Origin: Cristatella mucedo
Lineage: Eukaryota; Bryozoa; Phylactolaemata; Cristatellidae
Assembly (NCBI GenBank): GCA_009760855.2
Contig: WPIO01000007.1
Location: 3,208,501 to 3,272,500 of the forward strand
DNA length: 64,000 nt
Direction: 5' to 3'
Shown: piece by piece, positions 1 to 43,127 of the stretch
Layout of the letters: every line of letters begins with the position of its first letter
How positions within the stretch are numbered: position 1 is the first letter of the stretch
Position numbers and translations under genes: made by a program
The notes under the pieces: generated by a model
Databases searched by the model: none
Seen by the model: only the letters and a program-made list of their open reading frames with translations
Told to the model about the DNA's origin: nothing

Positions 1-26
1 GGAGAAGGGGAGATATAGAGGAAGGG

Positions 27-157
<131 letters not shown>

Positions 158-315
158 GTTGATTCACATGGTGCCTAGGTCATTTCTGGACCAACACTGT
201 ACACACGCATTTACATACACATGCATACACAAACAGGCACATACACTTACATACACAAACAGGCACAGGTACTTACATACACATGCAAGCAGCGTGTATA
301 CATATATACATATGC

Positions 316-346
<31 letters not shown>

Positions 347-362
347 CATTCTTAAACCTTTT

Positions 363-455
363 AATATAATAATAATAACAATACACTTGATAAAGTGCCC
401 TCAGAGAACTAAAATCTCTTTCTAGAGGCGCTTTACATTTGCTGCAAGGAAGCAC
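363..455 (-). mobile_element. LINE family A 3' tail fragment
   Basis: An AT-rich run is followed by cttgataaagtgccctcaga, ctctttctagaggcgcttta and catttgctgcaagg. Confidence 0.65.
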
Positions 456-769
456 ATACATATACATATTCACAGTCAGCAATCGACTCACGACGATTCG
501 ACTAAAGAAAATTCCGGGATACGAAGTCAGCCAAGGTCACACAAAAATTAAAATGTATCCATGAAAATGTTCAAAATCCGAGTGTGTCAGTAGACTTGAC
601 AAGGCCGCAACCAGTAGAAAGGAAACTATGTCTGACAGACATGCATTGAGGGTACCGACGGCTATTACATACCATTATCGACTTACAAAATAAATTCGAC
701 TTACGATAGGTTCTTTCTGATCCTTACACACGCGCGCACACACATGCATGTGCACGCACGCGCGCACAC

Positions 770-797
770 ACGTGTGTGTGTGTGTATGTGAGAGAGT

Positions 798-862
<65 letters not shown>
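770..862. repeat. (GT)n microsatellite
   Basis: Run interrupted once by tatgtgagagagtctc near 785-800 and preceded by a CA/CG-rich stretch from 725. Confidence 0.95.
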
Positions 863-863
<1 letters not shown>

Positions 864-1004
864 ACACTCAAACGCAAAAGTAGCTGCTTAATTGCCTGCA
901 CTCTGACTAAATATCGAACCTTCCTGACACCAGAAGTAAGCACACTGGTAGCAATAAGAAAAAGCAACATGTTTAAGCAATTATCAGCAATGTTCCTATA
1001 TTAT

Positions 1005-1680
1005 CAAGTTCATATGACGTTGCACCTCCCGTATTTGCAACGACTGGTAGGAACTTCGGTGGCATGGGGCTGATCACAAACACTCGCATGCATAAGCCGT
1101 TGTGCTACACTAGGCTCGTTGCAAGAGATCAGAATGTGCATCAGCAGAAGGCGTAAGAAGGGCAAGTTGCCAAAACCGTAGCTCAACATCATCCCACAAA
1201 TGCTCGATTGGATTAAGATTTGAAGACTGGCGCGGCCACTCCATAACAGTCACGGGAGAGTAACTGACCTCAAATAACTTGTAAAAATACTTAACTTACT
1301 TAGGTGGTGATATGTTTTGGGCAACAGAGCTGCCAGACCGTTTAGAACTGCTATACAAGTCACCACCCACACCATGGCATCTTTTCCCATGAATTTGGCA
1401 GTTTATTGCTGGGTGAGTAGGCTTTGTTGAGTCGCCTATGCACTGAAAGCTTCCAGTTTAAAGAGAGCTTGATCTTGCATTCATCGCTTCACACAACTCT
1501 ACCCCAATCTTCAGCAGTCTAGTGGATCTCAATCTTGGCCAATTACAAGGACTTACCATATTCACTTCACCGAGAGAGAAGATATTTTCTCTCAGAGATT
1601 CGATAATGCAGATCAGCCTCATCCAATCGCCTTCTGACTGGTGTGAACAATGACTCGCTATATGAAGCATGCCTCATGTG
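1005..1680 (-). pseudogene. Tc1/mariner transposase relic
   Basis: The minus strand reads TAEDWGRVV-SDECKIKL near 1470-1530 and EWPRQSSNLNPIEHLWDDVE near 1180-1250. These are two landmarks of Tc1-type DDE transposases: the segment with the second catalytic Asp, and the WP-QS-DLNPIEHLWD block before the third acidic residue. In-frame stops replace the Trp before SDE and occur elsewhere, and the frame shifts between the blocks. Terminal inverted repeats were not located, so the ends are approximate. Confidence 0.8.
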
Positions 1681-1783
1681 CAGTAGACTGAAACTAGTAG
1701 GGGCAACTAGGTCACGCTCCTCGCTTTACAAAGAGCAGCCCCAGCTTGCAGTGCTGGCAAAGGGCTGTGCCAAAAGCAGGCGG

Positions 1784-1960
1784 TACCGCGATGGTTTAGC
1801 CCAGTGGATACGGTGCTCGCCTCGACCAAGGTCAAGGTGAATGAATGTATTTGATGGCCGAGATCGTAGGCTCAAACACCAAGGCACATGTAAAGCACTT
1901 GAACAGAGATTAAGTTCTCTTACGGTGCTATACAGATGAATTACATTTATTTATGTAAAT
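1784..1960 (+). mobile_element. tRNA-derived SINE, family 1
   Basis: The head is tRNA-like (ggtttagcccagtggatac), then gccgagatcgtaggctcaaa near the B box. The tail, gtaaagcacttgaacagaga and ttaagttctcttacggtgct, resembles the LINE family A 3' tail. Confidence 0.6.
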
Positions 1961-2569
1961 GCCAAAGCAGGTGCTGCAGAGTCTATACCAGCACGTACTT
2001 ATGGTAGCCACGCTCGGACATTTCCCAGCTCAAACTGATTTCCTCAGGTATTCAGCTTACTAGCTCGAATACAAAACGTTGCCTCAACGCAAAATTCAAC
2101 ATCTATACAAAGATGATCGGCCTGCTTTTGCCCCCAGGTGTCAGCCCAGAGGTTCCACGATGAAATAAATGAAAGCATGTTTGAAGGTGAATACCATGCT
2201 TCAACAAAGAATCAGAAAGAATTATCATCAGGTCAGAAAATCTTCCTAGTCAGTGGCAGAGCCACAGGGCAGGGCAGTCTTTGGTCCCACTACCATAGGG
2301 GGGGGGGGTGGCCTAAGCCACCTGGCCGGCAACAAGGACGAAATTTTGTAATGTTATATCTTCACTCAATGAGCAGCTGCAGAGTTCGTGTTTAATAAAC
2401 AATTCATTTTGTGTGCTATAATTGTTCACTAATTTCATGTCTTTCACTATATACATGAATCTATCTTGTGAATGTTGGCTCCCTATGATATACTATGATA
2501 TCTTGTGAATGAATCCCTATGATATCTATATGATATCTATGAAATCTTGTGAATGTTGGCTCCCTAGAT

Positions 2570-2741
2570 CAGTGGTGGCTGTCATTCTTCCTAATGCTGC
2601 GACCCTTTAATGCAGATCCTCGTGTTGTGGCGACCCCCAACCGTAAAATTCTCGTGTGCAAAATGTGGAAATGCATGCTTTCCGATCGTCTAAGGCGACC
2701 CTTGTGAAAGGGTCGTTCGACCCCCAGGTTGAGAACCGCTG
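2570..2741. mobile_element. SPIN-like hAT non-autonomous element (MITE)
   Basis: This 172-bp element starts with cagtggt and ends with ggttgagaaccgctg. The right terminal inverted repeat reads CAGCGGTTCTCAACC, the motif I recall for SPIN-type hAT elements; the left repeat is partly mutated. Internal SPIN-like stretches are present: gcgaccctttaatgcag, gcgacccccaaccgtaaaat and gtgaaagggtcgttcgaccc. A perfect 8-bp target duplication, ccctagat, lies at 2562-2569 and 2742-2749, as expected for hAT. There is no transposase. Confidence 0.85.
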
Positions 2742-2749
2742 CCCTAGAT

Positions 2750-4272
2750 GAAAACCATGGCTCCACTCCTCTGTTCCTAGTGCATAATTTGTGACTCTAA
2801 ATAGATATCCGGGATGTGCAGCTGATTCTAGAGGAAGACCCATCGCAGCATGCGCACAATGGCACCTAATCCTCAGCTATCAACAACGTCTGATACACTC
2901 CGACATACACGGTACCAACGTATAGAAAACCCAAATTAGCTGTCGAACGGCTCGACCAAGAATTGAGTTCTTGCAAGACGAGTCGATGGAAATGCAAATC
3001 AAAAGGTATCATCGAAAAGAACTACTCACAGTCCGACCACAAAATAGTCCAACCACAAAATGATATCCATCCCTTACACGATCGATGACCTGGTAAACAC
3101 CATCCCAAGAGCTTCAACCTAATCAATATCGAGGGGATTTATTTTGCCTGCTGCATGCACCCATCTGGTTGACTAACGAACACCTCAGCAAAGATACGGA
3201 AACTTGGCAGAGAATTGATTGAAACTCAAATGGTGCATAGCATCCCCACATATGTACAAGGCGATAAACAAATGTTGGAGGCCAACCAACGTCAACACAA
3301 CCTAATTGTCAACAGGGTGAGTGCAAGCATAGAGCCAAATAGCTAACGGTTTATTTCTGCATATTTTAAAGACAGAACCGATCGCTGAACTATAATCCTT
3401 AGAGGTGGTCTGAGAGTGGCAATGATTGCCCACTAAGCTTCCCTTACGGCCTCCAACCGGCTTCACCATCGGGGCTCGAACTGCACAGCTGAGCCACCGG
3501 CAAGCACTCCACTAAGGAATTTTCATAGCCTCGGCTATTTGAACTACTTTTCCAGCCAATCGGGAGGTTGCATAAATGGGCAGCCTCCAGGAGTCCTAAA
3601 TCGGGGCTGGCAGCTTAGCCTTGAGAGATGACAGTATGACAGCAAGGCAGTAGCAGACCGTGGAAAGGACTGAAGTGTACTCCCCGAGTACTCGTGCAGA
3701 GGTCATCAGGACACAGCCATACACCAATACTCTGGGTCTGCTAGCTGCCTCTTGCCGACAGCCAAGCTGCTATGCCTACCTACGTTTCCCCCATACTGGG
3801 CAGTGTTCAACAAGCGCTCAAAACTCACATTACTCAGAGCTTGGCAAACGGTAGCTATAAAACTCCCGTGAGTGCCTCACTTTGTTCTATACACCACTGC
3901 AGAAATACCAAGCTAATGCCCAAGTGACCAAACTGACCCACCTGCGTTGAACGATGCTTCTCCCCCCCCTCTCCCTCTCCCTCTCTCGTCTCATCAGAAT
4001 CCTGCTAGGCAAAGGGTCAGCGGTGGGGTGATAACCATGATCCCCCACCAGCCCCCAACCCCGAGAAGGGATAGGGTGACACCCTGAGAGGGACAAATGG
4101 GATATAAAGAGAAAGAGAACAGGGAGCAGTTCGCAGGTAACTTAAGGTGGTACAAACTCGGGTAATACCATTGTCCCTGTAAGGGGGAGAGGGTTTGCTA
4201 AAGGTTCTAGAAATCTTTCTCACTGAGCTGACAGAGTGAGAGAGGGAGGAAGAGGAGGAGGAGGAGGAGGAA
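2750..4272. other. No gene recognised
   Basis: Mixed-composition sequence with one possible antisense tRNA-like SINE near 3415-3520 (ggggctcgaactgcacagct). I see no credible exon. Confidence 0.5.
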
Positions 4273-4345
4273 GAAGAAATAATAACACTGTACAACACCT
4301 TAAGAGGACTAATTCTCTTTCTAGGCTCTTTATACGAGCTGGAAA
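4273..4345 (-). mobile_element. LINE family A 3' tail fragment
   Basis: aataataacactgtacaaca, ccttaagaggactaattctc, tttctaggctcttt. Short tail piece following a GGA-rich run. Confidence 0.5.
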
Positions 4346-4574
4346 GGAAGGAAAGAATGAAGGGCATTGGACCGCATGACCTGGCCACAGAAGCGACAGC
4401 CGAGGGAGGGCAATCCAATCAGACATACGGTGAGAGTTCGCCCCAACGGCACACACCTTCAGGCAAGCAAGTTCGGGGGGGGGGCTGGGCCTGAGCAGGT
4501 AAGACTGTAGCCCTCCCCTTCCCGGAACCACTAAGACGTCCGGTAGGCTCGTAAGGCATTTTGCTCTCATACTC

Positions 4575-4745
4575 CTTCCACCCCTATACTTCTTACGCAA
4601 CGACAACTACTCTCCTTCTGCCGACTTCGGCTCATCCTTTCCAGCCGTCCCAAGCTGCTACTTCCATGCTACTCACTAACTCAACCGCTCTCCTGATTCT
4701 GCTGAGCTTCACACTTGATCTCTTTTGTGAGATAAAGTCAGCACG
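4575..4745 (+). mobile_element. LINE family B fragment
   Basis: cgcaacgacaactactctcc, tctgccgacttcggctcatc, agctgctacttccatgctac, actctcaaccgct-like text. It covers the UTR part only and lacks the terminus. Confidence 0.55.
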
Positions 4746-4784
4746 AACAAGCAGACAATGATAATTTAAGCGGACAGAGTAAAT

Positions 4785-5420
4785 GCCCCCAGGAATAGGT
4801 AGGTTTTCAGCTTCTTTTTAAATATCGCTGAGTCAGGGTACGTCGTGAAGTCATCCGCGAATGAGTTGAATGCTTCGGGACCGTATAAACTAAAGGCACG
4901 GTCACCAAAGGATTTGGGGGATGGTTAAAGGCACAGCAAACGACGAAGAAGAGTAGGCAGTAAGCTGCAAAGCCTGATTGGGAGGCATTCTGGGTAGGTA
5001 GGCCAGAGGAAGGGAATGAAAGGGGCATACAAGTGAGTGACAGAACCTTGAAGTCGACATACTACTTGATGGGAAGCCATTGAAGGTCAGCGAGAAGTAG
5101 TGCAACGTGGCAATTGCGGCGTCGACGACAGACAAGCCAAACTATACAGTTTTGCACCAACTGTATGTGTCTTATGGCACATGCAGGAAGACCTGAGAGG
5201 TGTGAGTTACAGAAGTCAAGATGGGATGTCACAAATACACGAACTAGCTTGGCCGTAGTATCTTTTTTCTAAGCAGGCATGCATTCTCGAGATTGCATGA
5301 ATGAGAGTAGGAAAGCTTGACCATAGAGCTAGCTGATGTGGTCGGCTCATGAAATGTCACTTTGAAGCAGGGCATTCAGGTTTCGTGCAGAAGCTTCTGC
5401 AGGAGATCTGCTGGCCAAAT
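4785..5420 (-). mobile_element. LINE family A fragment (RT C-terminus and UTR)
   Basis: The plus strand carries gttttcagcttctttttaaa, gtgaagtcatccgcgaatga, aaaggcacggtcaccaaagg and gacagacaagccaaactata, the antisense of the GDRAFS...ARLVC region. It ends about 80 bp before DCAF10-like exon 3. Confidence 0.65.
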
Positions 5421-5496
5421 CCACTTTGGAGGGTTAGGCGTTCCAATTTCTGGCACGGATAACTAACCCAGGCAGCCGATCGCTGGCGACACTCAC

Positions 5497-5691
5497 CCTG
5501 AGATGTCCGACCAGAGGAGGATCTTGCTATCAAAGCCCGACGACACGAGGCTGCCGTCGATATACTCAACATTTTTGACCCAGTGGTCGTGACCGGTGAG
5601 GATGGATTTGGGCTGCTGCAGATTCCTCAGATCCCAGATGCGCACCGTCCGGTCGTCAGAACACGAACAAAAAGTGTGACGATCGATGAAC
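5497..5691 (-). CDS. DCAF10: DCAF10-like WD40 protein, exon 3
   Basis: This 195-bp exon starts after acceptor gctgcag and ends at donor gtgagt (5496-5491). It encodes residues 137-201: FCSCSDDRTVRIWDLRN (end of blade 2), then GHDHWVKNVEY and SSGFDSKILLWSD (blade 3). The WDLR in the first segment fits the WDXR (DWD-box) motif through which DCAF proteins bind DDB1. The WVKN-EY and SGFD segments are features I associate with DCAF10 among WD40 proteins. The exon leaves two bases of a codon, so the gene must continue. No next exon could be recognised at lower coordinates, where LINE debris follows immediately, so the C-terminal part is probably beyond the left edge. Confidence 0.85.
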
Positions 5692-7142
5692 CTGCAGCGT
5701 TTTCATCAGCGTCAAACACGAGGGACAATATAGCTAGACATAAACCAGGTACTACAGTAGGCTGAATACCAGCTTCAACAAACTGTTGGCACCTCTGCGA
5801 AAGGCTGCACAAATGAGTGAGATCTTCATAGCGTCGTGAAACAATAAGTAGCTTTGACTGGTCTACAGATGCCTCTCAACAGGTCTATGGCTCTGAATAC
5901 CAGAGGTGGTGGCTTAAATTCTCAAAGGCGGCTCACCATATAATTCTTTCCCTCTGGTGCCGAAATACCCTTAAGCGTGGTCAGCATCATAGCAGTCAGT
6001 TCAGTCGGATATTATGCCACTTGGCAATTTTACACGTTTACATTTAGTAAGACAGAAAATGCTTTCATAAATAGCACCGGCACGCACAAGATACATGCTT
6101 TACAGCAGAACATACACGTGTCCTGAAGCAAGTGCAGAGATTAGAGCAGTAACACATAAATAAATAGGCACACTTTCATGAATGAATGAAGACTCAAGTG
6201 CAAGTTTCGACAGAGAGTATCAGCAGTGAACCACACACCCTCATATTTTCCGATCCCAAGTGATGTTCCAGTGACAAGGGACAGTGGCCACCTCGAGCAG
6301 CATCAGCTGCCACGACCAGATATCGAGCGGCGCTCTACAGAGTACGCTGCACAGCAGCAGCAACACCACCTGCTGCGGCTGCTACTAATAAAGACACACT
6401 CAGTGGTACCGATCTGCTAGCATCGAACCATCTGGAAGCAGTCGCACCTCTTTTTTTGCAGCACAAACAGCTCGAAGCACTGAGGGTCAGGGGCAGCCAG
6501 CAGCGACTGCACGAATCTCGGGCCTGATCAAGTCTGACAGATTATCGCTTAGATTGCCCAAAGGCTGACGGAACATCTGTCCAAGAACTCACAAAGGCCG
6601 GTAGCCAGGCGTTGTCTTAGGGGCTGAATATATGCCGTAAATGCACGGAACCGAAGTCGCCGGATGTGTATCAGTGCACTGCCTACTTTCTGTCCTCAAA
6701 GCTTAACAAGCCAAGAGCAGTAGCGCTTCCTTTAAAATGCATCGGTTCACTTTAGCAAGAGTTGCTGTGTGTCTAGCTACGCCTTTACAGATGCAGCCTC
6801 GTTCGCTACACTAGGGACAAGGTAATAATAATTACTATTGCTGCAGGGCAGCACTCTCATCATCCATCGATGTTATATCTTATTAAAAACGGAGCATGAA
6901 TGATCTTTTGAAGCAACATCAGAACAGAAAAATAAAGCAATGGCGTACTTCCAAAGAAAAATGAAGTTGTATATGAAGTCTCAATAAATCCACGATCCGT
7001 CAATTCCACTCCTGAACTAGAGTAATCTTCTCATATTATAGGTTTAAAAGCAGCTCTCTGAGTTTCGTTTGAAGAAGCTCAGAGCAAAGCTGCTGTTTGT
7101 TCATTGCTACTGCATCGAGCGACAGACAGACAAAAGCATAAG

Positions 7143-7144
<2 letters not shown>
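5692..7144 (-). other. DCAF10-like intron 2, first part
   Basis: Intronic by the splice model, with no recognised repeat or exon. The rest of intron 2 (to 12035) holds the microsatellites, SINE and LINE copy listed separately. Its 8615-10880 stretch is otherwise featureless apart from G-rich runs near 9170 and 9460. Confidence 0.6.

Positions 7145-7231
<87 letters not shown>
7145..7231. repeat. (GA)n microsatellite
   Basis: Perfect run ending in a G run, in DCAF10-like intron 2. Confidence 0.95.
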
Positions 7232-7237
<6 letters not shown>

Positions 7238-8070
7238 ACAGAGAGACGACAGAAAGAGACAGATAGTGGTAAACAAAGTGAAAAGAGACCGGCAGATAGA
7301 GCGAGAAAGAGATAAAGATTGAGAGCAAAGGCACACTACAAAAGCTTGTAGGAAGCAGTGAGGTAGGGGTCTGCTTCTTGACTAAAGCTTATGGGGTTCT
7401 TGTCTAAGACTTATTGGGTGGATACGTAGCTAACTGGACAAGCTGCTTACGCTATGTTTTGAGTGCGAGCAATGCAACTACCACAGAGACTACTCGTACG
7501 ACTCTTGAAAATATTGTGGTGCTGGCATTACAGCGCCATCCTATGGTCCAGCTATCTGGTATCTAAGCTGTCCCCCAACCATCCGGAAGATGAAGGGATA
7601 AGATTAATAGTAGCTGTTTAAAAGCAAAATCTGGCCGATAGGGTTTGTCTACTGCCACTACTTAGCATTCAGTAGGAAGAGCTAAGAGCAGATGATACAG
7701 AGCTTGTCCCAGCTTCCCAGCATGAGCAGCTTAGGGGCACAGCAAAGAGCCTGAAGCCGACTCGAAACACTGACGGTGGCCTAGCACTAGCAGTAGTCAA
7801 CCATGGAATGGCAGGAGTAAAGGGTTGTGATTCTAAATGTACATACACACTCATGTCGGTCACCACCACTCAAGCCTATTACATAATACCACATACTAAT
7901 TCATGTGTACACACATATTGCACGTGTAAGTCCATGCTAATGCACGCACACCAATGCATGTGCAAACCGGCACATAGACACAGACACACACAAACGCAGA
8001 CAAGCACAGACGGAGACACCCACAAGCATAGGCGCACGCGCATGCACACACGCACACAGAGACAGACACT

Positions 8071-8092
8071 GACACACACACACACACACACA

Positions 8093-8156
<64 letters not shown>
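8071..8156. repeat. (CA)n microsatellite
   Basis: Near-perfect run with one cgcg interruption, preceded by CA-rich sequence from about 7900; in DCAF10-like intron 2. Confidence 0.95.
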
Positions 8157-8158
<2 letters not shown>

Positions 8159-8517
8159 CAAGTCCAAGCACTCATACACATGCACATTAAACTAAGAAAT
8201 GAATTCAACTCATACGTCGGGAATGAAAGGATTCGATAGATATGAGATTGGCTTGCATATCAATACAGCACTTCGATAAGTGATTCTGAACCCGTTCATG
8301 CACCGTGCGTGCACTCTGCACAAGTGCTTTTGTGATGCAACCCCACTGAAAGCAGGTGAGGTCGAGGACATCGTGGATGCTAGAGTGAGTTCTAGAACAC
8401 ATTAAGCGTCTGAGCGGCTTGCTACACACAGGATTTAGTGTGAGCAGTATTAACAGCCTATGACGCACAGGATTGAGTGTGCTCTCAGCTCTGCAGGTGC
8501 GCCGTGTTGTCCACCAC

Positions 8518-8518
<1 letters not shown>

Positions 8519-8597
<79 letters not shown>

Positions 8598-8614
8598 CTC
8601 TCTCTCTCTCTCTT
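8519..8614. repeat. (CT)n microsatellite
   Basis: Run with one ttg interruption, 360 bp from the (CA)n run, in DCAF10-like intron 2. Confidence 0.95.
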
Positions 8615-10882
8615 TTAAAACATTGACCAAAATATGCTCGAAGGTGCAGCACTAGCTAGACAAACAGGCTACACTAACAAGGCTGCCGTGCTAAACAGCA
8701 GCACCACACAGCGATCACACTCGCAAAGCTGCAAATAATCAGCTGAGAGCCCTCTCAACTAGTTATTTGCAGGCGAGCAGGTTGTTGGCAGCTTGGGGGA
8801 CCAATGGGACCTGCAGACGCTGACATCGCTCGAGACAGCCAATCATAACAAGCATGCAGGTAGGTGCCAGTCCAAGGAGAAGGAATGGACAGAGCATGCT
8901 GGACCAATTCTTTGCATAATGGTCGCCACATTTTATGACTCATTTCGTATGATACTGATCGCATGCTTCAAGGCATTCTTTGAGTATCTAAGAAACTCCT
9001 AGCTAAGCCCTTACCCAGCCTCCACACAGTCGCTGCACTCAACCGGTAGGGTAGGCCAACAGTTGAAGGGCAGCATTTCAGCTTTCGACCGGCTTAAAAA
9101 GCAATTGCAAATTACTGGAGGCATGGCTGCAAAACAAGCAAAGTACCACTCAGCAGAGGGAGGCAGGGGGGAGGAGGGAGAAGGCGGGCGGGCGGAGGGG
9201 GGGCAGGGGATGGGAGAAGCAGTGAGGCAGAAAGGGTCACCCAGTGCTTTCTGGCAAGCCACCTAGGCCCACATTATACTCCCACTTAGAGAAGTCGACA
9301 GCCCGGTAGGCACCGAGTACCCACTACGACTTTAACAACCTGCTATGTGCAATATTCGATCGAGCCGGCGGGTGAGTTCTCGGATTGGGTGATGGTCGAC
9401 GAACGACTAATGATAATGGTATTGGATGGTGGCAGTGGCTGGGTCACCAGAGGTGGCCATAGGGGGGGGGGGAGACAACCCAAAGCCTCGAGTGCCGTGC
9501 AGCAGCCCAGGCAGCAGGACATCGGTGCCACATAACCTGGTCAGAGCAAGTGGTGTGGTGTCGGGTGCTCAGTCACTGGCCCGGCAGCAGGAGGCTGCCT
9601 GCTGCACGAGTCATCCAGATGCCAGGCAGCAAATAGGTTTTGCACCAGTTCACCTCCGCCAGGTGGTCCTCGATGCTCCGAAAACAGGCGTCCGGCAGCC
9701 TCCCACGGCACCTCCTTCGAGGGCTTTCGAAATGATGTCGACAGGCTGCTTGCTGCTGGGGCATCAAGGACGGCGATCGGCCCCCACCCCCCTACCGGCT
9801 TCCGGCAGGGCAAAGAAAGCATTGCAGGCGTTGGATGAATTGCATCACCTGGATGCTGATTCGTTGGCAGCTGATTAACATAATGGCTTAGCCACAAACT
9901 CAGCTAGTTCCCACACCAACGATGCAGCACATAGCCCGGGGCTTCCAGTAAACAGCCGGAAAAGCCTAGGCCCACAGCAAGGAGCCATTGATGTCGCAGG
10001 CTGCACTAGAATCAAATTGAGTACAGATTCACCGTGGGTTGGAGCCAACGGCCTGTCCCTTTGCTTTTCAAGCCTTTAGAATGTTGAGAAGATAAAGCTC
10101 CTGAGCAGTGACATGCACTGCATGCAAACCCCCAGTGCCGTGATTCCGATTGACAGATTGAGAATAAATGAGTGCAAGGATCCAGATCCAGGCAGGAGAG
10201 AAAAGGGTTGCTTTGCTCTGCATGGACTCACTGGAATTCACAGCAGGGTATTGCCCAGATGGCTGTACATACATGGCTGACCTCAAGTTGCCACAATGGA
10301 TATTACCAGCTACGAAACTGTACTGAGTAAGCAGCATTCACATGGCTCAAACGTTGTATGCTTGCTAACTTGGTGAACTGGATTAGACGTCGCACATGTG
10401 CAGGCACCATTGCACCATACCCAGGTGTGGACCATCAGCTAGCCTGCCAACCAAGTGGCCAAGTCCAAGATGTTGCTACCAACCAATCAGAAACGGCTTC
10501 ACGAGTTGCAGCTGTGGCACCATATTTTGGTGTAATTTGGGATGGGGCCGAAGTATAGGTAATTATTCTATGTTTGGGATACTGCAAGTATCTCACACAA
10601 AGATAGCAGTAATAGCAAAGAAATTAACCCCCAAGAAGTTGACGGTACCCTATAAGTTGTGCATGACTGAATGGCCACCGGCCAAGTGGTTCAGCAACCT
10701 GGGAAATGTTTCAAGAAGCACCCAATCAGCTGATATGAAAAAAAGCTCCTTGCTGGTTCCTTTGTGGCTACTGTGAACACAATGAGCTTGGAATTGGTCC
10801 CTGAATTCGACAGTCTCAACATTCGATGCTTTGCCAAGATCTTGCCAGTCGAGGAAGTCGGCAAACTAAGGCCAGATCCATC

Positions 10883-11032
10883 TGAATTAGTCCCTGGGTA
10901 AGGTACTTGCTCTTCACGACCGAGATCGTGGATTCGAGTCCTGCAGTCCATTATCACCCATTGTAAGTGATGGTGATAGCCATTGAGGCTCTTCTGCCAC
11001 TACATAAATGATGCTGTTGAATCAACTAACCT
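10883..11032 (+). mobile_element. tRNA-derived SINE, family 2
   Basis: gtaaggtacttgctcttcac, cgagatcgtggattcgagtc, aagtgatggtgatagccatt, gaggctcttctgccactaca, ttgaatcaac. Box B is GATTCGAGTCC. Confidence 0.65.
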
Positions 11033-11284
11033 TAATACAACTTTGCTTGGGCAACCCTCGACAAGATTTGAGCCCAGGGGATGTCCCTTAAGGTCATTAA
11101 TCTAAGACTTTCGGGTAATGGGACACGTAGCCCTGAGATCGTGATTGCATACTGACTACAGAAACCGGCCTCCCAGCTGAGCAAATATCAGCTAAGTACA
11201 GACCACATTAAAAGTAAACAGGAAATCCAAAGTCATCTCACTCAGTAGCTGTTACTTCAGCTGAACTGCCAACGCTCCACAGAC

Positions 11285-11552
11285 AAAATCGCAGCAGCAC
11301 CTACTCTTCTGCTGCCGACTGAGGCACATCCTTTCCAGCTGCCCTGAGTTACTACTTCCATGCTGCTCACTTCCTCAACTGCCTTTCCGACTCTGCTAAG
11401 CTTCTGACTTTCTCCTTCCTACGGAGGTGTAGGCTGTTGGCTACCGAACGTGTACCGAAAGCTGCGTAGGCTTTGAGTGCGTTATAGAAAACTCTCTAGT
11501 GTAACACCTACCTAGTCCTTGGGGCTTTGTCGAGTTACGAACGGAGATACAT
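11285..11552 (+). mobile_element. LINE family B 3' end
   Basis: ctgctgccgactgaggcaca, gttggctaccgaacgtgtac, acctagtccttggggctttg and cgaacggagatacattacag. It lies in intron 2 of the DCAF10-like gene. Confidence 0.65.
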
Positions 11553-12035
11553 TACAGTGGCGATCCTTTAACTCATGATGCGGTGCTGCAAAATTGTGGC
11601 CACAGCCAAAGAACCTCTGCGCACGAACCCATGATTATTTGCCAGAACACTCTGTGAAATGTGCCGACTTAGGTGACACAAGCTGATAAGCAAGGCACAG
11701 TGCTTAAACCGTTGCACAGTACTGACAGGTTCATGTAGCAAGCAGGAATCCCCCGAAAAATCAACCGATGTCTAAAAAGAATAAATACCACCCTATTGGG
11801 CAGACCTCTTTATGCCGAAAAAGGTAAAAGATGCATTCCTCAAAAATGTATGACTTCTCGAGTATATAACTAGCCTCTCTCATGTCATGGCTTCCCACAC
11901 TGCTGGATCACTGGTACATGAGTGCAAAGCAATACCTGCCGTCAGGCACAGCAGAGCAGTGCCCCAAGCAGATGGCAACAAACAACAAAGCCGGCATAAT
12001 GCGGCCTGCTGGTAGCTTAAGACAGTCCATCGTAC

Positions 12036-12149
12036 CTGATAGCATTGACACAGTCGTTATGGGCATCAGTCTTGGCTTTGATTTGGCGTTTGTTATGAGG
12101 GTCAAAGATGGCAAGTGTCTTTCGCTCACAGGCGCACACCAGCAAGGTC
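12036..12149 (-). CDS. DCAF10: DCAF10-like WD40 protein, exon 2
   Basis: This 114-bp internal exon begins after an acceptor (tgctgtag at 12150 and above) and ends at donor gtacg (12035-12031). It encodes TLLVCACERKTLAIFDP, then NKRQIK and AHNDCVNAI, that is, the end of blade 1 and the start of blade 2. One base enters from exon 1 (GG+G = Gly99) and two bases leave (AG), which exon 3 completes as Arg137. The phase fits at both ends, and the joined text AHNDCVNAIRFID reads as a continuous WD40 blade, which is strong evidence for the model. Introns of about 5.4 kb and 6.3 kb flank it. Composition is ordinary, unlike the GC-rich first exon. Confidence 0.85.
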
Positions 12150-12617
12150 CTACAGCATGACAGCAGTTTAACAATAGCAGCAAGGACGACAACTTCAATT
12201 CTGAACAGTGTCTGTAAACAGATCGCCAAGCCTTCGGCTGCTGCTGCGATTGCTGCTAGGCTTCCACTCGAACAAGATGATCGAAGCAGGGAGTAGCTAC
12301 GACATAGGGGCAGGGGAACGCTAAGGTCGAACTTGTGGGAACACCTAGCAATAAGCAGGAAACAGCCAGCCAGCACAAAATAAAAATGGCCCTGAGGCTT
12401 AGGTAGGGCAGGCAGGCAGGCAGACAGGGTGCACTCCCTTCAGGTATGGCAGGATATCTTCGAGTTCATCTAAGCTTAACGAAAGGAGCCCAGAATAGCA
12501 AGGCTGAATAGTAGATCTTGGCCAACAGCCAAATACCAATACTGGCTCCAGCAAAGAGACTAATTCAAGAGGCTAACTGCCTTCTCTTCGTGAGTCAGGT
12601 GTAGTAGCAGCTTGCGA

Positions 12618-12740
12618 GACCAGTACAGCTGTCACCAAGGCGAGCACAGCTGTCACCAAGGCGAGCACAGCTGTCACCAAGGCGAGCACAGCTGTCACCA
12701 AGGCGGGCACAGCTGTCACCAAGGCGGGCACAGCTCTCAC
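12618..12740. repeat. 21-bp minisatellite
   Basis: About six tandem copies of gcgagcacagctgtcaccaa plus g, with a gcggg variant in the last two. It lies in DCAF10-like intron 1. Confidence 0.92.
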
Positions 12741-14119
12741 CAGCCCTGCTGCTAAGCGCAGGCTCATCCTGTTAAGACAGGCCAGCTGCTTCGTCAGCCA
12801 GCCGGCTGGTCTACCCTCTCCTGCACGGGTAGGGTGGGCACTGGAGAGGTGTGGAGGATGGGGGAGCCTGAAGGCCAGCATTGGCTTCGTGGTCACGAAA
12901 GCAGCCAGCCAGCCAGCCAGCCTGCTTGCTCCAAGCCAGCCAACCGGTGGCTCCTCTTTGTCACGGTAGACGACTCCATTCACACCCCGATGAGCAATCA
13001 GGGGGCTCGACAGCAGCTGTAGGTGGCTGCAGCCGGTAGGAGGCTGCACCAGCAGCCACTCCCTTAACCACTCGGCAGCTACAGCAGGTGCCTTGAAGTT
13101 GGTGGGGGAAGGGCCGAAAGGGAAGGGGCAATCCAAATTAGGCTTAACTAGCCTATGCAAGCAAGCCTTTTGGTAACCTACAACGGCCTCTCTAACCAAC
13201 CCTAGGAAGCTGGCTGGAGTAACTTAACTGTAATGGAAGATGGTAGGCTAGCAAATGATCCAAGAGAGTTGGATTTATTAACCAGGCCGAGACAGGGGTA
13301 GAAAGTATCTCGAAGGCTGCTACCACATTTATCCGGGCCAATCGAGACTAAGCAGATACCGGCAACACTCACATAACAATCATAATGATAATGATAATTA
13401 TAATAAGATAGTTGCATAGCACCGTAGGAAAACTAATCTCTTTCCAGGCACTTTGCATATGTTGCAGAAGAATGCAACCATCGACAAAACTGGGGTTTAG
13501 AGGATGCTCAGAAACAAAAAGCCAGATGCACTGATGCTCCGATGCACTGAAAGCCTGACCGATTTACAGGCCCCGGTGTCTGCTGCCGTGATGACTTCCG
13601 AATTGAAGTGATTTGTCGTTCTGTCACTAGACAAGAATGGGTTCAAGGCTACGTCAGGAGGAAATCGGCTGATGCAAGAGAAAGCTGCACTAGTAATAAT
13701 AATAATAATAATAATAATGTACTTGATAACGCGCCCTCAGAGAACTCAATCTTTTTTAAGGCGCTTTACATTTGCTGCAAAGGGAAATGCGATTAAATTG
13801 TGAGTAATATCGTGTTTGATAAACAACATGAATAACATGGTTAAAGGTGACATGCACAGGGTGAGCATGCAAGTGTGGTTAGTGGCAGCATGCACAGTGT
13901 CAGCACGCATAAGCACGTGAAGGACGAATCACAGGGACCCACTACATGCTGTCCTACTAGTGGCAGCAATAATAAGCTGACCAGACAATGACCTTGTCTT
14001 AGTCAGCCACACAGAAGGAGAAACTAGCATTGTAAGCTTTTTAGTGTTGCACTAAGATGGGTGCATGTTGCCACTGTTGGGACAGCAGAGGACAGAAGAG
14101 CTCTGTTGAGACTGGTCTG
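12741..14119 (-). other. DCAF10-like intron 1 segment
   Basis: Intronic, with a LINE family A tail at 13692-13970. The remainder is unassigned, and a 208-codon minus ORF here (12573-13199) is built on the minisatellite and looks non-coding. Confidence 0.5.
13692..13970 (-). mobile_element. LINE family A 3' end
   Basis: It begins with (AAT)8 on the plus strand, followed by the tail block tgataacgcgccctcagaga and ggcgctttacatttgctgca. The 3' UTR then contains gtgacatgcacagggt, agcatgcaagtgtggttag and agggacccact. Confidence 0.8.
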
Positions 14120-14300
14120 TTGCTCCAAGCTTTGCTACTGTTCAGCTCTGTTTCTCCGCAAGTTGTGCCTCTTGTCCCCGAAGTCATGAATTCGAATCCT
14201 ACGGTGGGCGATCCTGTATTGCCACTGCAAGCGGCAGTGATAGCCGTAAAGGCTCTCCTGTCACTGTACAAAAGAGGCCATTGAATCTTCCAAAGTGCCT
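14120..14300 (+). mobile_element. tRNA-derived SINE, family 2
   Basis: gtcatgaattcgaatcctac, tattgccactgcaagcggca, gtgatagccgtaaaggctct, cctgtcactgtacaaaagag. Confidence 0.65.
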
Positions 14301-14806
14301 GCCAGACACGGGTGCCTTCGCCGAAGGCTGCTGCAAACAGTAGTTCGGATTGTCCGCCGGGCTCTCCCGGAGAGGCTCGGCACAACAAGCTTTTATATTT
14401 GGATGCCAATCTCGTTATTTTACATATAAAACACACACTTACACAATAACACATACACATAGCCCTACTACATAACTTTAATTGCTGCCTAACTGGGAGC
14501 CTCTCAAGTACCAGTTTTTTATTTAGTCTTATCGGTGTACTTGAGTTAAACCAACTGCACTATCGGTAGTTGCAACATAAGAGGATGTGCTCGACTAAGA
14601 AAACACTGCCGATACAACCAAGATGTCAGCTGTGCTCGACTAAGAAAACACTTGCTCGAAAAGAACATTATGAAGCCGACACCAGTTTCCCAAAAGACCT
14701 GCGGAATGACCCTTATGCCAGACTCCTCGCAAAAAAGAAAAGGTTGCAAGCTTCCAGCACATGACTTTCTCTGCCTGAGAAGGGTGGGTGAGAGGTCTGA
14801 GATTGT

Positions 14807-15317
<511 letters not shown>

Positions 15318-15982
15318 AGATACAGACAGAGTGGGTGAGAGACAGACACAGACAGAGTGAATAAGTGAGGGGGGAGGACGAAGGAGAGTGAGTCAGAGTA
15401 ATAAATGGGTACACGAGTTGAGACAGATAAATAGATACATGCTACAACTACATTTGCCTGAAACTATCAGCTAGGTTCTGCACCATCAGCTAGGTTGTGC
15501 TTCATCACTACAGGACATCAGAGGAGCAAATTTCAAATGTATAAAGCACCAAAGGGCAAGACCAGACACCGACGGCCTTAAAATACCTCAGCAGAAGCAA
15601 GGGAAAAAATGACTGGACACCCAAGTATATAAAACGGCACCACCCACGATTCTGTAATCTGCATGGATTTTTTGCGGTTCGACAACCAAGAGCACACATT
15701 AACTCTTGCATGCCACCCACCCCCTTAATAACCTAGAAAATCGTGAGCTGACCAAAAAGGCTCGTAATAATTTATCGGAGCTGTCTGAAAGGGATTCAGA
15801 TGAAAACCAGAGCCCGTGGATCTGTAGAACTTCGTCTGGCAGCAGGTAGTGGCAATGGTGAGCAGTAGCAGCTGAGACATCGGAGTGACCAACACGATTG
15901 AGGAGGACGCTGAAGGAGGCCAGTAGCTCACCCGGAAGCTTAAGAGCATGCTAACACCTGTGGACATCTACGGTAGCCATGA

Positions 15983-16013
15983 CTGCTGCTGCTGCTGCTG
16001 CTGCAGCAGCAGT
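15983..16013. repeat. (CTG)n-CAG inverted trinucleotide run
   Basis: About seven CTG units directly followed by CAGCAGCAG, so the strand can fold on itself. In DCAF10-like intron 1. Confidence 0.85.
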
Positions 16014-17591
16014 AGATGCTGCTATTGATGATGCTTCCACTGCTCACACAGCAACCGAGTGCACCAGATAAGAGATAGGGCCACATAACACTGTTTACTG
16101 CTCACTTCAGCATCAAGGACTTGCCCATGGGACTTTGTCAATGGCAAGCAGCAGAACCATATGCAAGAGACTGAACCTACGCAGAAAAGAAGAGCAGCCT
16201 GGCTTCTGTAGACCACGAGCATTACAGCCTCTGACGGCACGGTGAAAACATGATCAAGTAGTGTCAGTGGTCACGTGTACATGGGTGGGGGTCCCCAACA
16301 AAGTAGTAACCTAGAGCTGAAGAGGACAGGCTGGGTCACGAGGGTACAAGATATGCGTGATGTTGAAGCCTTTTGACAAATTCATCGATCGATCCGCTCA
16401 GCTCAGGTTACTTCCCTAGCTGTCATAAGGCATTCGAATGGCTCAAATGGAATGCATAGGTGAGTCCAAGACTTGCCAGATATCGAGGCTCATTTTGCCG
16501 GTGCTCGGCAAGTTGGTCTATAGTTCGCAAGAGGCCCTCCACCCCCATGTACCTAAGGCCAGCCATAAATCACTGTTAAAAACTTGTGGGCGGTTGACAT
16601 GTTCAAACCAAGCAAAGCATCATCCTTGGTCTAGCATTCCGACCGGGAGATAGTGAATGATTGCTAAGCTGCTTCCCAACAATGCAATCGCGATGCACTA
16701 GCTATTAAGGAGTCCTCCACTTTCGGGAGCAAACTGCTGCTCCCTAATTGTGCAAGGAGCTCCTCAGCAGTTTGGCACAGACCGTGATCCCATCTCAGCT
16801 AGCAACATGGGCCAGGTGCCTGCCACACCATTACCAGCAATGGAGGTGACTGACCACTAACAACAGCCCCTGCGAAAGTTTATGAACAACCTGCAGCAAG
16901 TAGTCGTCGGAGCCATCGACCGTGAATGATAAGACGAGCTCCTATTTGCTGGACGCCTAGCACTAAGCAGCTGCCTACCCGAGTTGTAGCAACCAAGGAA
17001 AGTGCAGGCGTGCCTTCGGTCACGCACCAATGAGCATTCATGGCTGAACAGCAGGGGGTTACTGCCTCTACCTGAGCTCGAGGGAAGAGACGATCCTGTG
17101 CTGCCGGCTAATCGCTGCTTGGCCGGTCGGGAAGAGGTCACAAACGCCCTTCCCAGTTCTGGCTGCTGCACGATGCAGCCAGCAAGTCCCTCGAGGCCTG
17201 GCAGCCTCGAAGTCGACTGACAGTCAACAACGGGTCAACACTCCCAAACCGGTGCAGCACGGCTGTTGCGGGCGCCTCTAGAAGGTCGAGGCCAATTATG
17301 ACAGCCACGAAGAAAGGAACGAAAGTTCGAGATGAAAATGGACCACCGTCGAGATGATGTCGACTGAGGCAAAGGGTAACTTCCGGTGGAGCTAGACGTC
17401 TTTCGTCGTACCCGGCTGCCGCCGCGGCGGCCGGCCGAGTGGAAGACCGGGCTGAGTACCGGGAGAAGATTGGGGATGGGCGGTCGGTGGGCGACAGCGC
17501 GAGGAACGACAGCGGCCGCCGCGGCGAACGCGCTGCCGGCGGCGGCGGCGGCTGAGTACCGGGCTGAGTAGCGGGTGGACCGGCGGCTTAC

Positions 17592-17887
17592 CCGTCGTGT
17601 GAGAAGTCGAAGCTGAAGACTCCGCCGTGGTCGAGAAGAGCGGGCGGCGGCTCGGCTAGCTTCGCCGCTCGTGAAAGCGGGTCGCAGAGGGAGGGCACGT
17701 GTCCGCTGTATCCGCTCTGAGTCGAGTACGTACACTGCACCCGCTCGTAGATGCTGCGGTGCAGGCGCGAAGCGCCGCTCCCGAAGCAGCGCTTCGCGTG
17801 CGCGTCGCACGCGCGTGTCCCGTAGGCCAGGCGGCCGGATATTTCCCTTCTGGCCGTCCATTGCCACGGTAAGAAGCGGTCATTCAT
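17592..17887 (-). CDS. DCAF10: DCAF10-like WD40 protein, exon 1 (start exon)
   Basis: This is the first coding exon of a predicted CUL4-DDB1 ubiquitin-ligase substrate receptor. The ATG at 17887 opens a frame beginning MNDRFLPWQW; a second ATG at 17883 lies in another frame. The exon ends in the first WD40 blade (HGGVFSFDFSHDG) at a consensus donor (GG, then gtaag at 17591-17587). It leaves phase 2, which exon 2 completes as a Gly codon, reading SHDGTLLVCACE across the junction. Residues 1-98 come from this exon, and the leader is Arg/Ala-rich. The exon lies in a CpG island. Assignment rests on recalled similarity to metazoan DCAF10 (WDR32) in the blade sequence and order. The start is the first in-frame ATG I can support, but an upstream non-coding exon is possible. 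Confidence 0.8.
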
Positions 17888-18110
17888 GGTCGGCCGGACT
17901 GAGCGACGAGGAGCTCTTGAACATCGCTACGTCGCCAGCCGGACACGGCTCGCCCAAATTACCAGCCCGAAGCCGCGGCACTAGAGTTCAAGGCCGCGGC
18001 AGGTCACTTTGGGCGGTCCTGCTCGCTGGGCGCCCTCCCATCCCTCCCCCCATTGGCCGGCGGCCGCTGCTGGAATTGCGGTCGTAACAACAGCGACTGC
18101 TAGCCAACTA
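17885..18110 (-). promoter_or_regulatory. CpG-rich promoter region of the DCAF10-like gene
   Basis: The GC- and CpG-rich sequence around exon 1 continues about 200 bp upstream of the start codon. It holds an inverted CCAAT motif (attgg on the plus strand at 18052-18056) and a GGGCGG box near 18011. There is no TATA box at a sensible distance. This pattern fits a housekeeping CpG-island promoter. The transcription start is not determined. Confidence 0.45.
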
Positions 18111-18399
18111 TGCGCACGCCAGCGCCGGCTCAGCCGGACTGGTCATCATTCTGCAATTCAAGGTTACTCTGTCGCCGGAAGCCTCTGATCTATCTTCAGC
18201 TGTCTCTAGACGGGCGGCAGTTTGGAGTTGAGTCGCCGGGGAACTTGCCTCGAGTTCCAATCGCCCAGGTGTGCGAGCTGTGCGAGCTGTTCGCGATCGG
18301 AACTATCGTCTATAACTAACTATATATATATATCGTCTATAACTAACTATAACTAACTATCGTCATTGTCAGGCGACGGGTACATTAGTCCTTGCCTGA

Positions 18400-19990
18400 C
18401 AATGATAATAAGATAGTAATAAAAAAATTTCTCAAACCATAAGAGAACTAAATCTCTATCCAGGCTCATTAAAACTTGCAGCAAGTGAAACAATAACCAT
18501 ACAAATAATGATATTAAAAACAACCGCACGCTTGTATAGCCCCCAGCCAGGTAAATTAAAAATAATGATACAGTTGTTATAGCCCCCCTCGCCAGAGAAA
18601 TTAATATCTTTCTAGGCACTTTAAATTTTCTGTAAAGAAAGCATGATCGAATGGTTGGCGGTAGTATACTCAATGAATAGCAAGCATAACATGGTAAGAG
18701 GTGACATGCACAGGATAAGCATGCAAATATGGTTAGTGGCAGCACGCATAAGCACATAAAGGTCGAATCACATGGACCCACTAAATGCTGTGATAAGCAG
18801 ATGCCTTTTTATTTTATTTTCAAATTCGGTAAAGTCAGGGCATGCCGTGACGCAAGTCGGAAGTGAGTCCGGGCAGGCTTTGGAAGCATACGAACTAAAG
18901 GCACTGTCTCCAAAGGATTTCAACGATTTGGTTCCAATAAGAAGGGGGCACAATGCTTAGCACGTGGGGAGTATATCTGATAGGTTGGGTGGAGCCAAAG
19001 AATGAAGAAACCTAAAAGTGAGTGACAGAGCCTTGAAGTCGTTGCGTTGCTTGACTGGGGGCCAGTGCAGGTTGGAGAGAAGCGGTGTGATGTGGTAACT
19101 GCGACGCTCACGACAGACAAGCCTAGCTACAGAGTTTTACCCAGCTGTAAGCACCTGAGTGCACAGGCCGGTAGACCAGCAAACAGTAAGTTACAGAAGT
19201 CGAGACAACATTTTGCAAATGCACGGACCAATTTATATATGGTATCCCTGTCTAAACAAGCCCAAATTTTAGCAATTTGAGCAGCTGAAAGTAGGCAGAC
19301 TTGATTGTGGAGCTGACGTGGTCGTCTAACGAAAGGTCACTTTGGAAAAGGACACCTTGATTTCATGTAGATTCAACAGGAGATATACTGTCAGAGCCGA
19401 TTGCGAACGTTAAATTTTTTCAATTTTTGAGTCACACTTGGTTTTCCTACAAATAGTAAATAATGACTTGAAAAGTATAAAAACACGCAGAAGGCAGAAC
19501 TCAGGACCGCTGGTTAGTGGGACCCCTGGATGGTAACATTCACTGAAATACTACCTGGTCACGGCCAGAGAAAATTCGGGAGCTAGCGAAGTATTTAACC
19601 AGCCACGGTTGTTACTTCGTGCGTAGTTCCCAATCCAAGCTAGGTATCGAACATGATGAATAGCCGATCGGTACGATCTTCTAATTAAAAGTTTCAAGAA
19701 TTTGAAAAACTAGATCCGCATTTATGAACGTTAGACATTGGTCGCACCGCAGTGTCTCCAATTAGCGAGCAAGCCAACTCGTTCCTGCAAGACGCTTAGA
19801 GCATCCGATTATGAGTTCAGTTTTATCGTCGCTAAGTTTAGGGAGATTGGCCAATATTCCTAATCCGATGTCTGCCAGATAAGCGTCACCTTTTTCATTC
19901 ACCGTCGTTGACTCCAAGTGCTTGACAAGTACTGCCGGGTATTGTGGTGATAGTACTAAAGCCTGGAACTTACTTCTGACTGGCGTCACG
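18400..19990 (-). mobile_element. LINE family A copy (L2-like) with RT C-terminus and 3' tail
   Basis: On the plus strand this starts with an AT-rich (ATA-type) run and the conserved 3' tail, including a ~45-bp stem-loop block. It continues with the GDSAFSSYASKA block and TEFENKIKRHLLITAFSG at 18770-18950, then LADIGLGILANLPKLSDDKTEL near 19800-19870. So it runs from the 3' end back into the RT. Multiple stops are present. Confidence 0.75.
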
Positions 19991-20009
19991 ACACCCCCTG
20001 ACGACCATA

Positions 20010-20228
20010 TTTAAAAAGAAAGTAAAAACGATTCTACTTACCACAGCATTTAGTGGGTCTATATGATTCTTCCTTTGTGTGCTTATGCGTGCTGACACTG
20101 TGCATGCTGCCACTAACCATTCTATCATTCTTCCTTTGCAGCAAATGTAAAGTGCCTAGAAAGCGATTGCGTTCTCTGAGGGCTCTATAAGAAATGTGCT
20201 ATTATTACTATGACTATTATTATTATCG
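20010..20228 (+). mobile_element. LINE family A 3' end
   Basis: It shows ttccacag-type UTR text, tgtgcttatgcgtgctgaca, cagcaaatgtaaagtgccta, gaaagcgattgcgttctctg, then an ATT-rich tail ending at about 20228. Confidence 0.75.
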
Positions 20229-20504
20229 ATAGCGTAGGCGTACGATCGGGATTTATAGCTAACAATTCCACAGAAGCTGCTTAGCTCGAGCTTTAAAATA
20301 TCTCTTAGGGCAATTCTGGTCAGGACACTGTCTCTCTACCAGTCACCCTAGAAATCTCAGCAGCATCTGACAGACTTAGCCGCCGGTTACTTCTGGAAAG
20401 ACCCTCAATGCACCTCGGCACCAGTGGCTGCGATCAAATGGGGCAGGTCCTACCTCAGTGAGAAATGTCAGTGTGTAGATGCAAATGTCATTCATTTGTA
20501 TAGT

Positions 20505-20690
20505 GCTTAATATAGCTTAACCTTTATTCAGGCGCTTCACGTATGCCATGGGGCTCGAGCCCACGACCTCGGTCATCAAATACATTCATTCACCTTGATA
20601 TTTGTCGAGGCGGACACCTTGACCGGTGAGCAAAAAACCAGCTTTCGGCCATTCTTGGAGCCCTTAAAGTAAGCGCTACCGGTCGATCCG
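20505..20690 (-). mobile_element. tRNA-derived SINE, family 1
   Basis: Antisense copy: aggcgcttcacgtatgccat, ggggctcgagcccacgacct, cggtcatcaaatacattcat, gacaccttgaccggtgagca. Confidence 0.6.
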
Positions 20691-20749
20691 GTCGTACTAT
20701 GTCCTCGTCTGTTCACCATTTTCACTCTCCCGCGCGGGAGAGTGAATAT

Positions 20750-21620
20750 ACCGAGGATATCATCCTAGCCAAACACAAACAAGGCTTCCATTCTCCACGC
20801 CGACGAGACTCAGCTCTGCCTGACCTTTGACGCTTCTATGGCCTTGTTCCGTACCCGAATCGATTTGAGTCTCGTAAAACACGCGACGACGACATTCGCA
20901 CTTGGGTGATCATTAACTTCCTGAAGCTTAATGGTGGTAAGACCAAACTAATAGTTATGGGCAAGCCTAATGTCACCCCTCAAGTTACAAAACCTTACCC
21001 TCAAGATTAAGTCATCTGACGTCACTCCAGTGACGTCTTCGCGTAATCTGGGCCTGCTGTTCCACAGAGACTTGCCATGGGATGGGCAGAATTCCTTCGC
21101 TATCAAGTCGGCTTACTTTCAGAAGAGAAACTTTGCCAAAATAAGTGAGGATTAGGCTAGAGTACGACAGCCAAACTAGTTCTCGTGTTTGTGTCGTTGC
21201 TGCAATATTACTGCAAGTCATTTCATTATCAGGACTCTTTGACTCAGGGCCCTTGAACGTCTGCAACCGGTGCAAAGCTCAGCAGCTCGTCTGGCCTTTC
21301 ATCAAAGGCGTAGCTGCCACATCGCACTATTCGTATCTGGGCTTCAGCGGCTCCCTATCAAGCATTGAATCGGCTGCAATGTCCGTGTACAGTATCAAGC
21401 TTTGAATCGCTTGCAGCAGCAGCCTACTTATTCGACCTCCATGCTCCTTCAGTGTTCTATGCAAAACCACCCGCTCCTCGGCGTCCAGTCGTATTCAAGT
21501 CCTCGCACTAAATTGGAATCTTTTGGTGATCGGCCCTTCGAATTGTATGTACCGAAAGTCTGGAACTCGCAGCAGTTTTTGGTCACTATCTGTAATGAAT
21601 TTGAACCAGGTTAATCTCAT
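20750..21620 (+). mobile_element. Degenerate LINE reverse transcriptase fragment
   Basis: The plus strand reads LHADETQLCLTFD (compare the YADDTQLY catalytic motif), FLKLNGGKTKLIVMG, SRNLGLLFHRDLP, SAARLAFHQRRSCHIALF and GDRPFELYVPKVWNS. These are successive blocks of a non-LTR RT C-terminal half, broken by stops and frameshifts. The catalytic DD has become DE. Confidence 0.75.
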
Positions 21621-21825
21621 CAAAAGATGCAGCTGTTTCGCTCAGCTTTCTATTAGCGCTGGTGAACTCATGTTCGCTTTTTTGTGTGCATCGCATATTT
21701 ACCTACGTGCGATTTCCTTCAAGTTACTAGCCATAGGTTCTACTAATCGGTGGCCCGAGTATCTTCCTGTACCTTTTAGCATCCAGGCCCAACCACGATA
21801 CTCGTGTGCCTGCCCCTGTAATGCA

Positions 21826-34611: not shown

Positions 34612-34748
<137 letters not shown>

Positions 34749-43113: not shown

Positions 43114-43127
43114 ACATACATGCATAC

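What the first reader, a model, noticed from the sequence alone, without database searches (positions are those of the whole stretch)
2562..2749. SPIN-like hAT MITE with a perfect 8-bp target duplication
The 172-bp element has a right terminus (CAGCGGTTCTCAACC when reversed) and internal blocks that match what I remember of the SPIN family. SPIN is known for repeated horizontal transfer among distantly related animals, including mammals, reptiles, flatworms, a bug and a pond snail. An intact ccctagat duplication suggests a fairly recent insertion. The left terminus is mutated, so it is probably not mobile now. Finding SPIN in this lineage would add a host to that transfer network.
Basis: partly seen in the sequence, partly recalled or inferred. 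Interest (0 to 1): 0.75.

Follow-up and report, generated by a model that had tools for sequence, protein, structure and literature searches.

The report
SPIN hAT MITE in an invertebrate
This is one decayed copy of a short jumping DNA of the SPIN type, a family known for crossing between distant animals, and it sits in an unnamed, apparently invertebrate genome that holds many more copies.

Summary
A 172-bp element (2570-2741) is flanked by a perfect 8-bp duplication, the only one among 5,501 CAG...CTG segments of 100-300 bp in the window. The host genome lists 41 places, the window included, on 27 contigs. Thirty copies give a 187-bp consensus with intact ends and the target preference nnnTAnnn of Buster-group hAT transposons (TA in 57 of 60 flanks). 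Published mouse DNA agrees at 65 of 77, 18 of 19 and 18 of 20 positions. The mitochondrial COX1 does not read with the vertebrate code. Near-identity of such DNA to mouse points to horizontal transfer, untested by phylogeny. The insertion is not especially recent: this copy is 10.7% from consensus, the other thirty 4.1-9.7%.

The parts
2562..2569 (.). left target-site duplication CCCTAGAT (fits nnnTAnnn)
   Evidence: nnnTAnnn rule from PMC3499496 and PMC3517528
2570..2741 (+). 172-bp SPIN-type hAT MITE, 10.7% from the host-family consensus; the consensus was built in this orientation
2570..2591 (+). left terminus, damaged (3 extra bases and substitutions against consensus CAGTGGTTCTCAACCTTCC)
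2588..2650 (+). left subterminal core, 58 of 63 identical to the recalled SPIN-type consensus; nearly the same stretch aligns over 62 columns to the published mouse Adh5 copy
2651..2683 (+). middle, shared with the host copies but unlike the middle of the recalled mouse form
2684..2725 (+). right subterminal core with the palindrome GGGTCGTTCGACCC (2710-2723); 39 of 42 identical to the recalled consensus
2725..2726 (+). place where 18 bp present in the family consensus (positions 154-171) are missing
2726..2741 (-). right terminus, intact (CAGCGGTTCTCAACCT when reversed)
2742..2749 (.). right target-site duplication CCCTAGAT

Best explanation
The element is a decayed copy of a multi-copy, non-autonomous SPIN-type MITE (hAT superfamily, Buster group). 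A SPIN transposase made by a full-length element is inferred to have bound its ends in trans, cut it out and inserted it at an nnnTAnnn target, making the 8-bp duplication. The family multiplied in this genome and then decayed. The copy lacks 18 bp beside its right tip and has a damaged left tip, so it is probably immobile. Because the consensus is almost the same as the murine SPIN-type element although the host is apparently an invertebrate, the family most likely entered this lineage by horizontal transfer. Shown: anatomy, duplications, target preference, multi-copy family, likeness to mouse DNA, a COX1 that is not readable with the vertebrate code. Inferred: trans-mobilisation, immobility, horizontal transfer and the SPIN name itself.
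For: Perfect duplication, unique among 5,501 segments. 41 places on 27 contigs, 1,934 first-look candidates of which 40 were scored. 187-bp consensus from 30 of 39 fetched copies. T and A at flank positions 4 and 5 in 57 of 60 each, the Buster signature. 153 of 156 positions agree with a consensus recalled before other host copies were seen; the three differences are C or G here against T or A in the recalled form, each in a CpG of the host consensus. Published mouse DNA agrees with the host consensus at 65 of 77, 18 of 19 and 18 of 20. SPIN is reported from murine rodents (PMC5857283). COX1 has in-frame AGA/AGG and is not open in the vertebrate code.
Against: The SPIN reference is recalled, or consists of mouse fragments that I call SPIN from memory; the recall was made after seeing the window element. 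Of the recalled blocks searched in papers, none of 6 was found and 1 of 6. Buster families share about 106 bp of terminal sequence (PMC4298943). The middle differs from the recalled murine middle. Ungapped, the damaged left tip is no closer to mouse (9 and 10 of 19) than to Buster2 (11 of 16), and the Adh5 copy's end agrees with the right tip at 14 of 19 only; primer R1 did not stand out in the ungapped test (633 of 2,000 shuffles as good). No hAT gene with these ends was found among 50 of 138 PF05699 places. The copies were chosen by likeness to the window copy, so divergence is biased low.
Confidence: 0.9

Rival explanations
1. It is a MITE of another Buster-group hAT family, inherited vertically in this lineage, that resembles SPIN because Buster ends are conserved.
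For: PMC4298943 reports shared terminal regions of about 106 bp among Buster elements. The middle differs from the recalled murine form. Ungapped, the damaged left tip agrees with Buster2 at 11 of 16.
Against: 153 of 156 positions agree with the recalled SPIN-type form. The intact right tip agrees with a mouse primer at 17 of 19, against 11 of 15, 11 of 16 and 12 of 16 for Buster1 tips, 12 of 16 for Buster2 and 7 of 11 for Mar. DNA without coding constraint would hardly keep such identity with mouse by descent.
Confidence: 0.07
2. The copies come from vertebrate DNA that contaminates the assembly.
Against: 41 places lie on 27 contigs, seven of them over 10 Mb (lengths). The mitochondrial contig is not readable with the vertebrate code.
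Confidence: 0.01
3. Chance likeness plus a chance direct repeat.
For: Short tips such as CAGTGGTTCTC are common among hAT elements (recalled).
Against: 0 of 500 shuffles reach the mouse alignment score, 0 of 2,000 for the core without the tip, and many genome copies exist.
Confidence: 0.002

Closest known systems
SPIN non-autonomous elements (SPIN_NA) of hAT/Buster, murine form
   Same: ends and subterminal blocks: 153 of 156 positions of the host consensus against the recalled form; published mouse fragments 65/77, 18/19 and 18/20
   Different: middle is 31 bp here against 69 bp in the recalled form and unlike it; three CpGs here are TpG or CpA there; the window copy lacks 18 bp
SPIN_NA_12_RP / SPIN_NA_13_RP of Rhodnius prolixus (named in PMC11614815)
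   Same: SPIN non-autonomous elements in an invertebrate genome
   Different: their sequences were not in reach, so not compared
Buster1 and Buster2 MITEs (PMC4298943)
   Same: Buster group, short tips, found in distant animals; Buster1 has TGGGTCGCG subterminal repeats and the host consensus has one GGGTCGCG
   Different: tips agree with the right tip here at 11 of 15, 11 of 16 and 12 of 16 (Buster1) and 12 of 16 (Buster2)
Mar MITE of Drosophila (PMC3517528)
   Same: 8-bp nnnTAnnn duplication, non-autonomous Buster element
   Different: tip agrees at 7 of 11

Membership tests
hAT superfamily | 8-bp target-site duplication | tested here: met
   window copy perfect; 10 of 30 aligned copies perfect, the other 20 at 6 or 7 of 8 (the script chose ends that favour matching flanks and CAG-like tips)
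Buster group of hAT | target preference nnnTAnnn | tested here: met
   T in 57 of 60 at position 4 and A in 57 of 60 at position 5; window CCCTAGAT
SPIN | short terminal inverted repeats beginning CAG, SPIN type (type recalled) | tested here: met
   host consensus ends CAGTGGTTCTCAACC / CAGCGGTTCTCAACC; in the window copy only the right end is intact
SPIN | similarity beyond the terminal 16 bp | tested here: met
   core without tip against a published mouse copy, which I take for SPIN from memory: score 62, shuffle maximum 26, 0 of 2,000
SPIN | about 95% identity to the published SPIN consensus | tested here: inconclusive
   153 of 156 to a recalled consensus; no published consensus could be fetched
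SPIN | autonomous partner with a SPIN transposase | tested here: inconclusive
   PF05699: 150 of 766 candidates scored, 138 places listed; 50 of these examined, none flanked by these ends in the DNA held
SPIN | patchy distribution and identity above host-gene identity (horizontal transfer) | not testable with these tools
   no related genomes are held for this host
MITE | short, without transposase, many copies of uniform length | tested here: met
   29 of 30 aligned copies are 170-190 bp and one is 198 bp; consensus 187 bp; no hAT domain at E 0.1 in six frames of window 1-15000, 15001-30000 and 32401-47400

The most novel reading that the evidence does not exclude
A SPIN wave reached a further invertebrate lineage, perhaps outside the arthropods, and produced a large MITE family there, whose CpG-keeping consensus and distinct middle may mark its donor or vector.
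Probability: 0.6. Interest if true: 0.55.

Novelty: new member of a known kind. Interest (0 to 1): 0.5.

Why it matters
SPIN is a model of DNA transposons moving between distant animals. Each added invertebrate host, with its own copy number, age and middle segment, narrows the routes and vectors of those transfers. Here the consensus of a short element without coding capacity in an apparent invertebrate is nearly the same as the murine one, which descent cannot easily explain.

Tried and rejected
Pattern scans of viral contigs and genome contigs, and BLAST of phages and plasmids, found nothing; these are collections of viruses, prokaryotes, phages and plasmids. Paper searches for SPIN letters: one search gave three mouse papers, none, two of the same three. 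A search for the name URR1 with SPIN did not settle the naming. Other listings only led to the passages cited. A search for the ANKAR-like window protein in viral contigs found no relative. Rfam and ARAGORN on the window: 0 and 0. Strand folding is only mildly better than shuffles (z -2.03, 8 of 200 as good) and was not used.

Autonomous partner: the top PF05699 hits are a different, very young hAT family; the 30 fetched copies show no SPIN ends. Twenty weaker hits with several kb around them gave one match to the consensus, in L094, at the place of the MITE copy L032 already known. A genome-wide copy count by pattern did not complete. Host phylum: Chitin_bind_4 and the haemocyanin beta-sandwich domain gave 0 hits, but the tool warned that no control rang, so absence is not shown; the annelid linker search did not complete. 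The first script for block identities stopped with an error after the left block and was redone for the right side.

Full report
What is there. At 2570-2741 lies a 172-bp segment that begins CAGTGG and ends CCGCTG, flanked on both sides by CCCTAGAT. In the whole window 5,501 segments of 100-300 bp begin CAG and end CTG; only this one has an exact 8-bp repeat at its flanks. GTTGGCTCCCTA occurs twice left of the element (2474 and 2555), so CCCTAGAT on the left is plausibly the native target. No second copy was found in the window, and no hAT domain at E 0.1 in the six frames of 1-15000, 15001-30000 and 32401-47400; the rest of the window was not scanned that way.

First comparison, before the genome could be reached. 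The element aligned to the mouse passage with score 65 against a maximum of 29 in 500 shuffles, and to the recalled consensus with 107 against 27. Primer R2 agreed at 15 of 20 (1 of 2,000 shuffles as good); primer R1 aligned locally at 16 of 17 at the right tip but did not stand out in the ungapped test (633 of 2,000). Without the tip, the core still scored 62 against at most 26 in 2,000 shuffles. Against the recalled form the window element lacked 18 bp beside the right tip.

The host genome. The genome search answered once for the element: 572,011,866 bases in 688 contigs, 41 places (the window's own included) on 27 contigs, 1,934 first-look candidates of which only 40 were scored, so the true copy number is unknown. 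I fetched 39 stretches that cover the other 40 places (L038 holds two, of which one was read). Ends and duplications were read by script. Thirty of 39 had both tips recognisable and were aligned; nine were dropped (L019, L020, L029, L033, L035, L037, L044, L045, L046). The consensus is 187 bp. It shows the ordinary left tip CAGTGGTTCTCAACC and contains the 18 bp missing from the window copy, letter for letter as in the sequence recalled earlier. Outside the middle it agrees with the recalled form at 78 of 80 and 75 of 76 positions; the three differences are T or A in the recalled form at places where the host consensus has CpG. One of the three, position 26, is split in the host: 14 of 30 copies have T there. 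The consensus agrees with the published mouse copy at 65 of 77 positions, and with the two primers at 18 of 19 and 18 of 20. The middle (31 bp) is not the recalled murine middle (69 bp).

Group and mechanism. Flank positions 4 and 5 are T and A in 57 of 60 cases each, the Buster rule nnnTAnnn (PMC3499496, passage; PMC3517528, passage). PMC3499496 places SPIN in the Buster family. The sequence is thus a non-autonomous Buster hAT element that moved by cut and paste with a transposase supplied in trans. The last step is inferred: no autonomous partner was found. The PF05699 search scored 150 of 766 candidates and listed 138 places. Thirty of them (3,237 bp each) and twenty more with several kb around them were searched for the MITE consensus; the first thirty had no match, and the twenty had one, the MITE copy already known as L032.

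Age. The window copy differs from the consensus at 18 of 169 positions (10.7%). The 30 others differ by 4.1-9.7%, mean 6.8%, 5.9% outside CpG. These 30 were among the best matches to the window copy, so the family is probably more diverged than this. CpG sites changed at 13.5% against 5.9% elsewhere. The perfect duplication is weak evidence for youth: 10 of 30 copies have one. The 18-bp loss has company: five of the 30 (L010, L018, L021, L024, L032) have 14-17 gap positions, mostly in or near the same stretch but with differing limits; full-length matches to the window copy favour such copies.

The host. The best COX1 match lies on C688, a 21,008-bp contig, which I take for the host's mitochondrion. 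Its frame is closed many times in the vertebrate code (AGA and AGG in frame) and open in tables 4, 5, 9, 13 and 14. That AGA/AGG stand at conserved serines and AAA at conserved lysines, hence table 5, is my reading from memory of COX1, as is the step that this speaks against cnidarians and sponges (table 4), flatworms and echinoderms (tables 9, 14) and tunicates (table 13). The arthropod cuticle domain and the haemocyanin beta-sandwich gave no match, without a positive control. The host is therefore apparently a non-vertebrate animal, perhaps a lophotrochozoan, unnamed.

Known context. SPIN in galago, murine rodents, opossum, tenrec and vespertilionid bats: PMC5857283 (passage). In Rhodnius prolixus: PMC11614815 (passages). 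385 SPIN copies in a turtle: PMC4054807 (passage). The pond snail Lymnaea is recalled, not seen. That the mouse fragments are SPIN copies (in mouse annotation perhaps under the name URR1) is recalled; one search did not confirm it. PMC4298943 (section 5, part 1, read) warns that Buster elements share about 106 bp of ends, which is why the SPIN name is held at 0.9 and not higher.

Verdict. A true, decayed copy of a SPIN-type MITE family in an apparent invertebrate. Horizontal transfer is the best reading of near-identity between this host's element and mouse DNA, but it has not been tested with host phylogeny.

Noticed in passing
L048-L077 (host genome): A different hAT family, very young: 62 of 138 listed places score 73.5 bits or more, 16 of them with open frames of 635-642 aa. 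L059 matches the other 29 fetched copies at 99.0-100% in the longest piece of each (1.3-2.2 kb; one short piece 95.5%), and none of the 30 has SPIN ends.
   Followed up: partly
L099 (contig C688:9000-15559) and L098: The 21,008-bp mitochondrial contig has COX1, NAD3, NAD1 and NAD6 on one strand (names by my reading of the frames, COX1 by Pfam). Frames at 2633 and 4748 of L099 are identical, so a stretch is repeated at a spacing of 2,115 bp.
   Followed up: partly
window 52979-54607, minus strand, with likely further exons down to about 48500: Ankyrin plus armadillo gene (ANKAR-like by domain make-up) with a 543-codon stretch at GC3 0.915; the 4-kb blocks of the window have 41-60% G+C.
   Followed up: partly
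window 29625-30320, minus strand: Reverse transcriptase fragment, LINE-like (RVT_1).
   Followed up: no
window 31206-32105: Long hexanucleotide arrays GAGGCT and GAGACT, and many dinucleotide arrays elsewhere.
   Followed up: no
about window 5511-5681, minus strand: Weak WD40 / beta-propeller match below the curated cut-offs, possibly one exon.
   Followed up: no
L038 (C676:2828080-2828470): Two copies of the MITE family on opposite strands about 100 bp apart, the second only 75% identical to the query.
   Followed up: no
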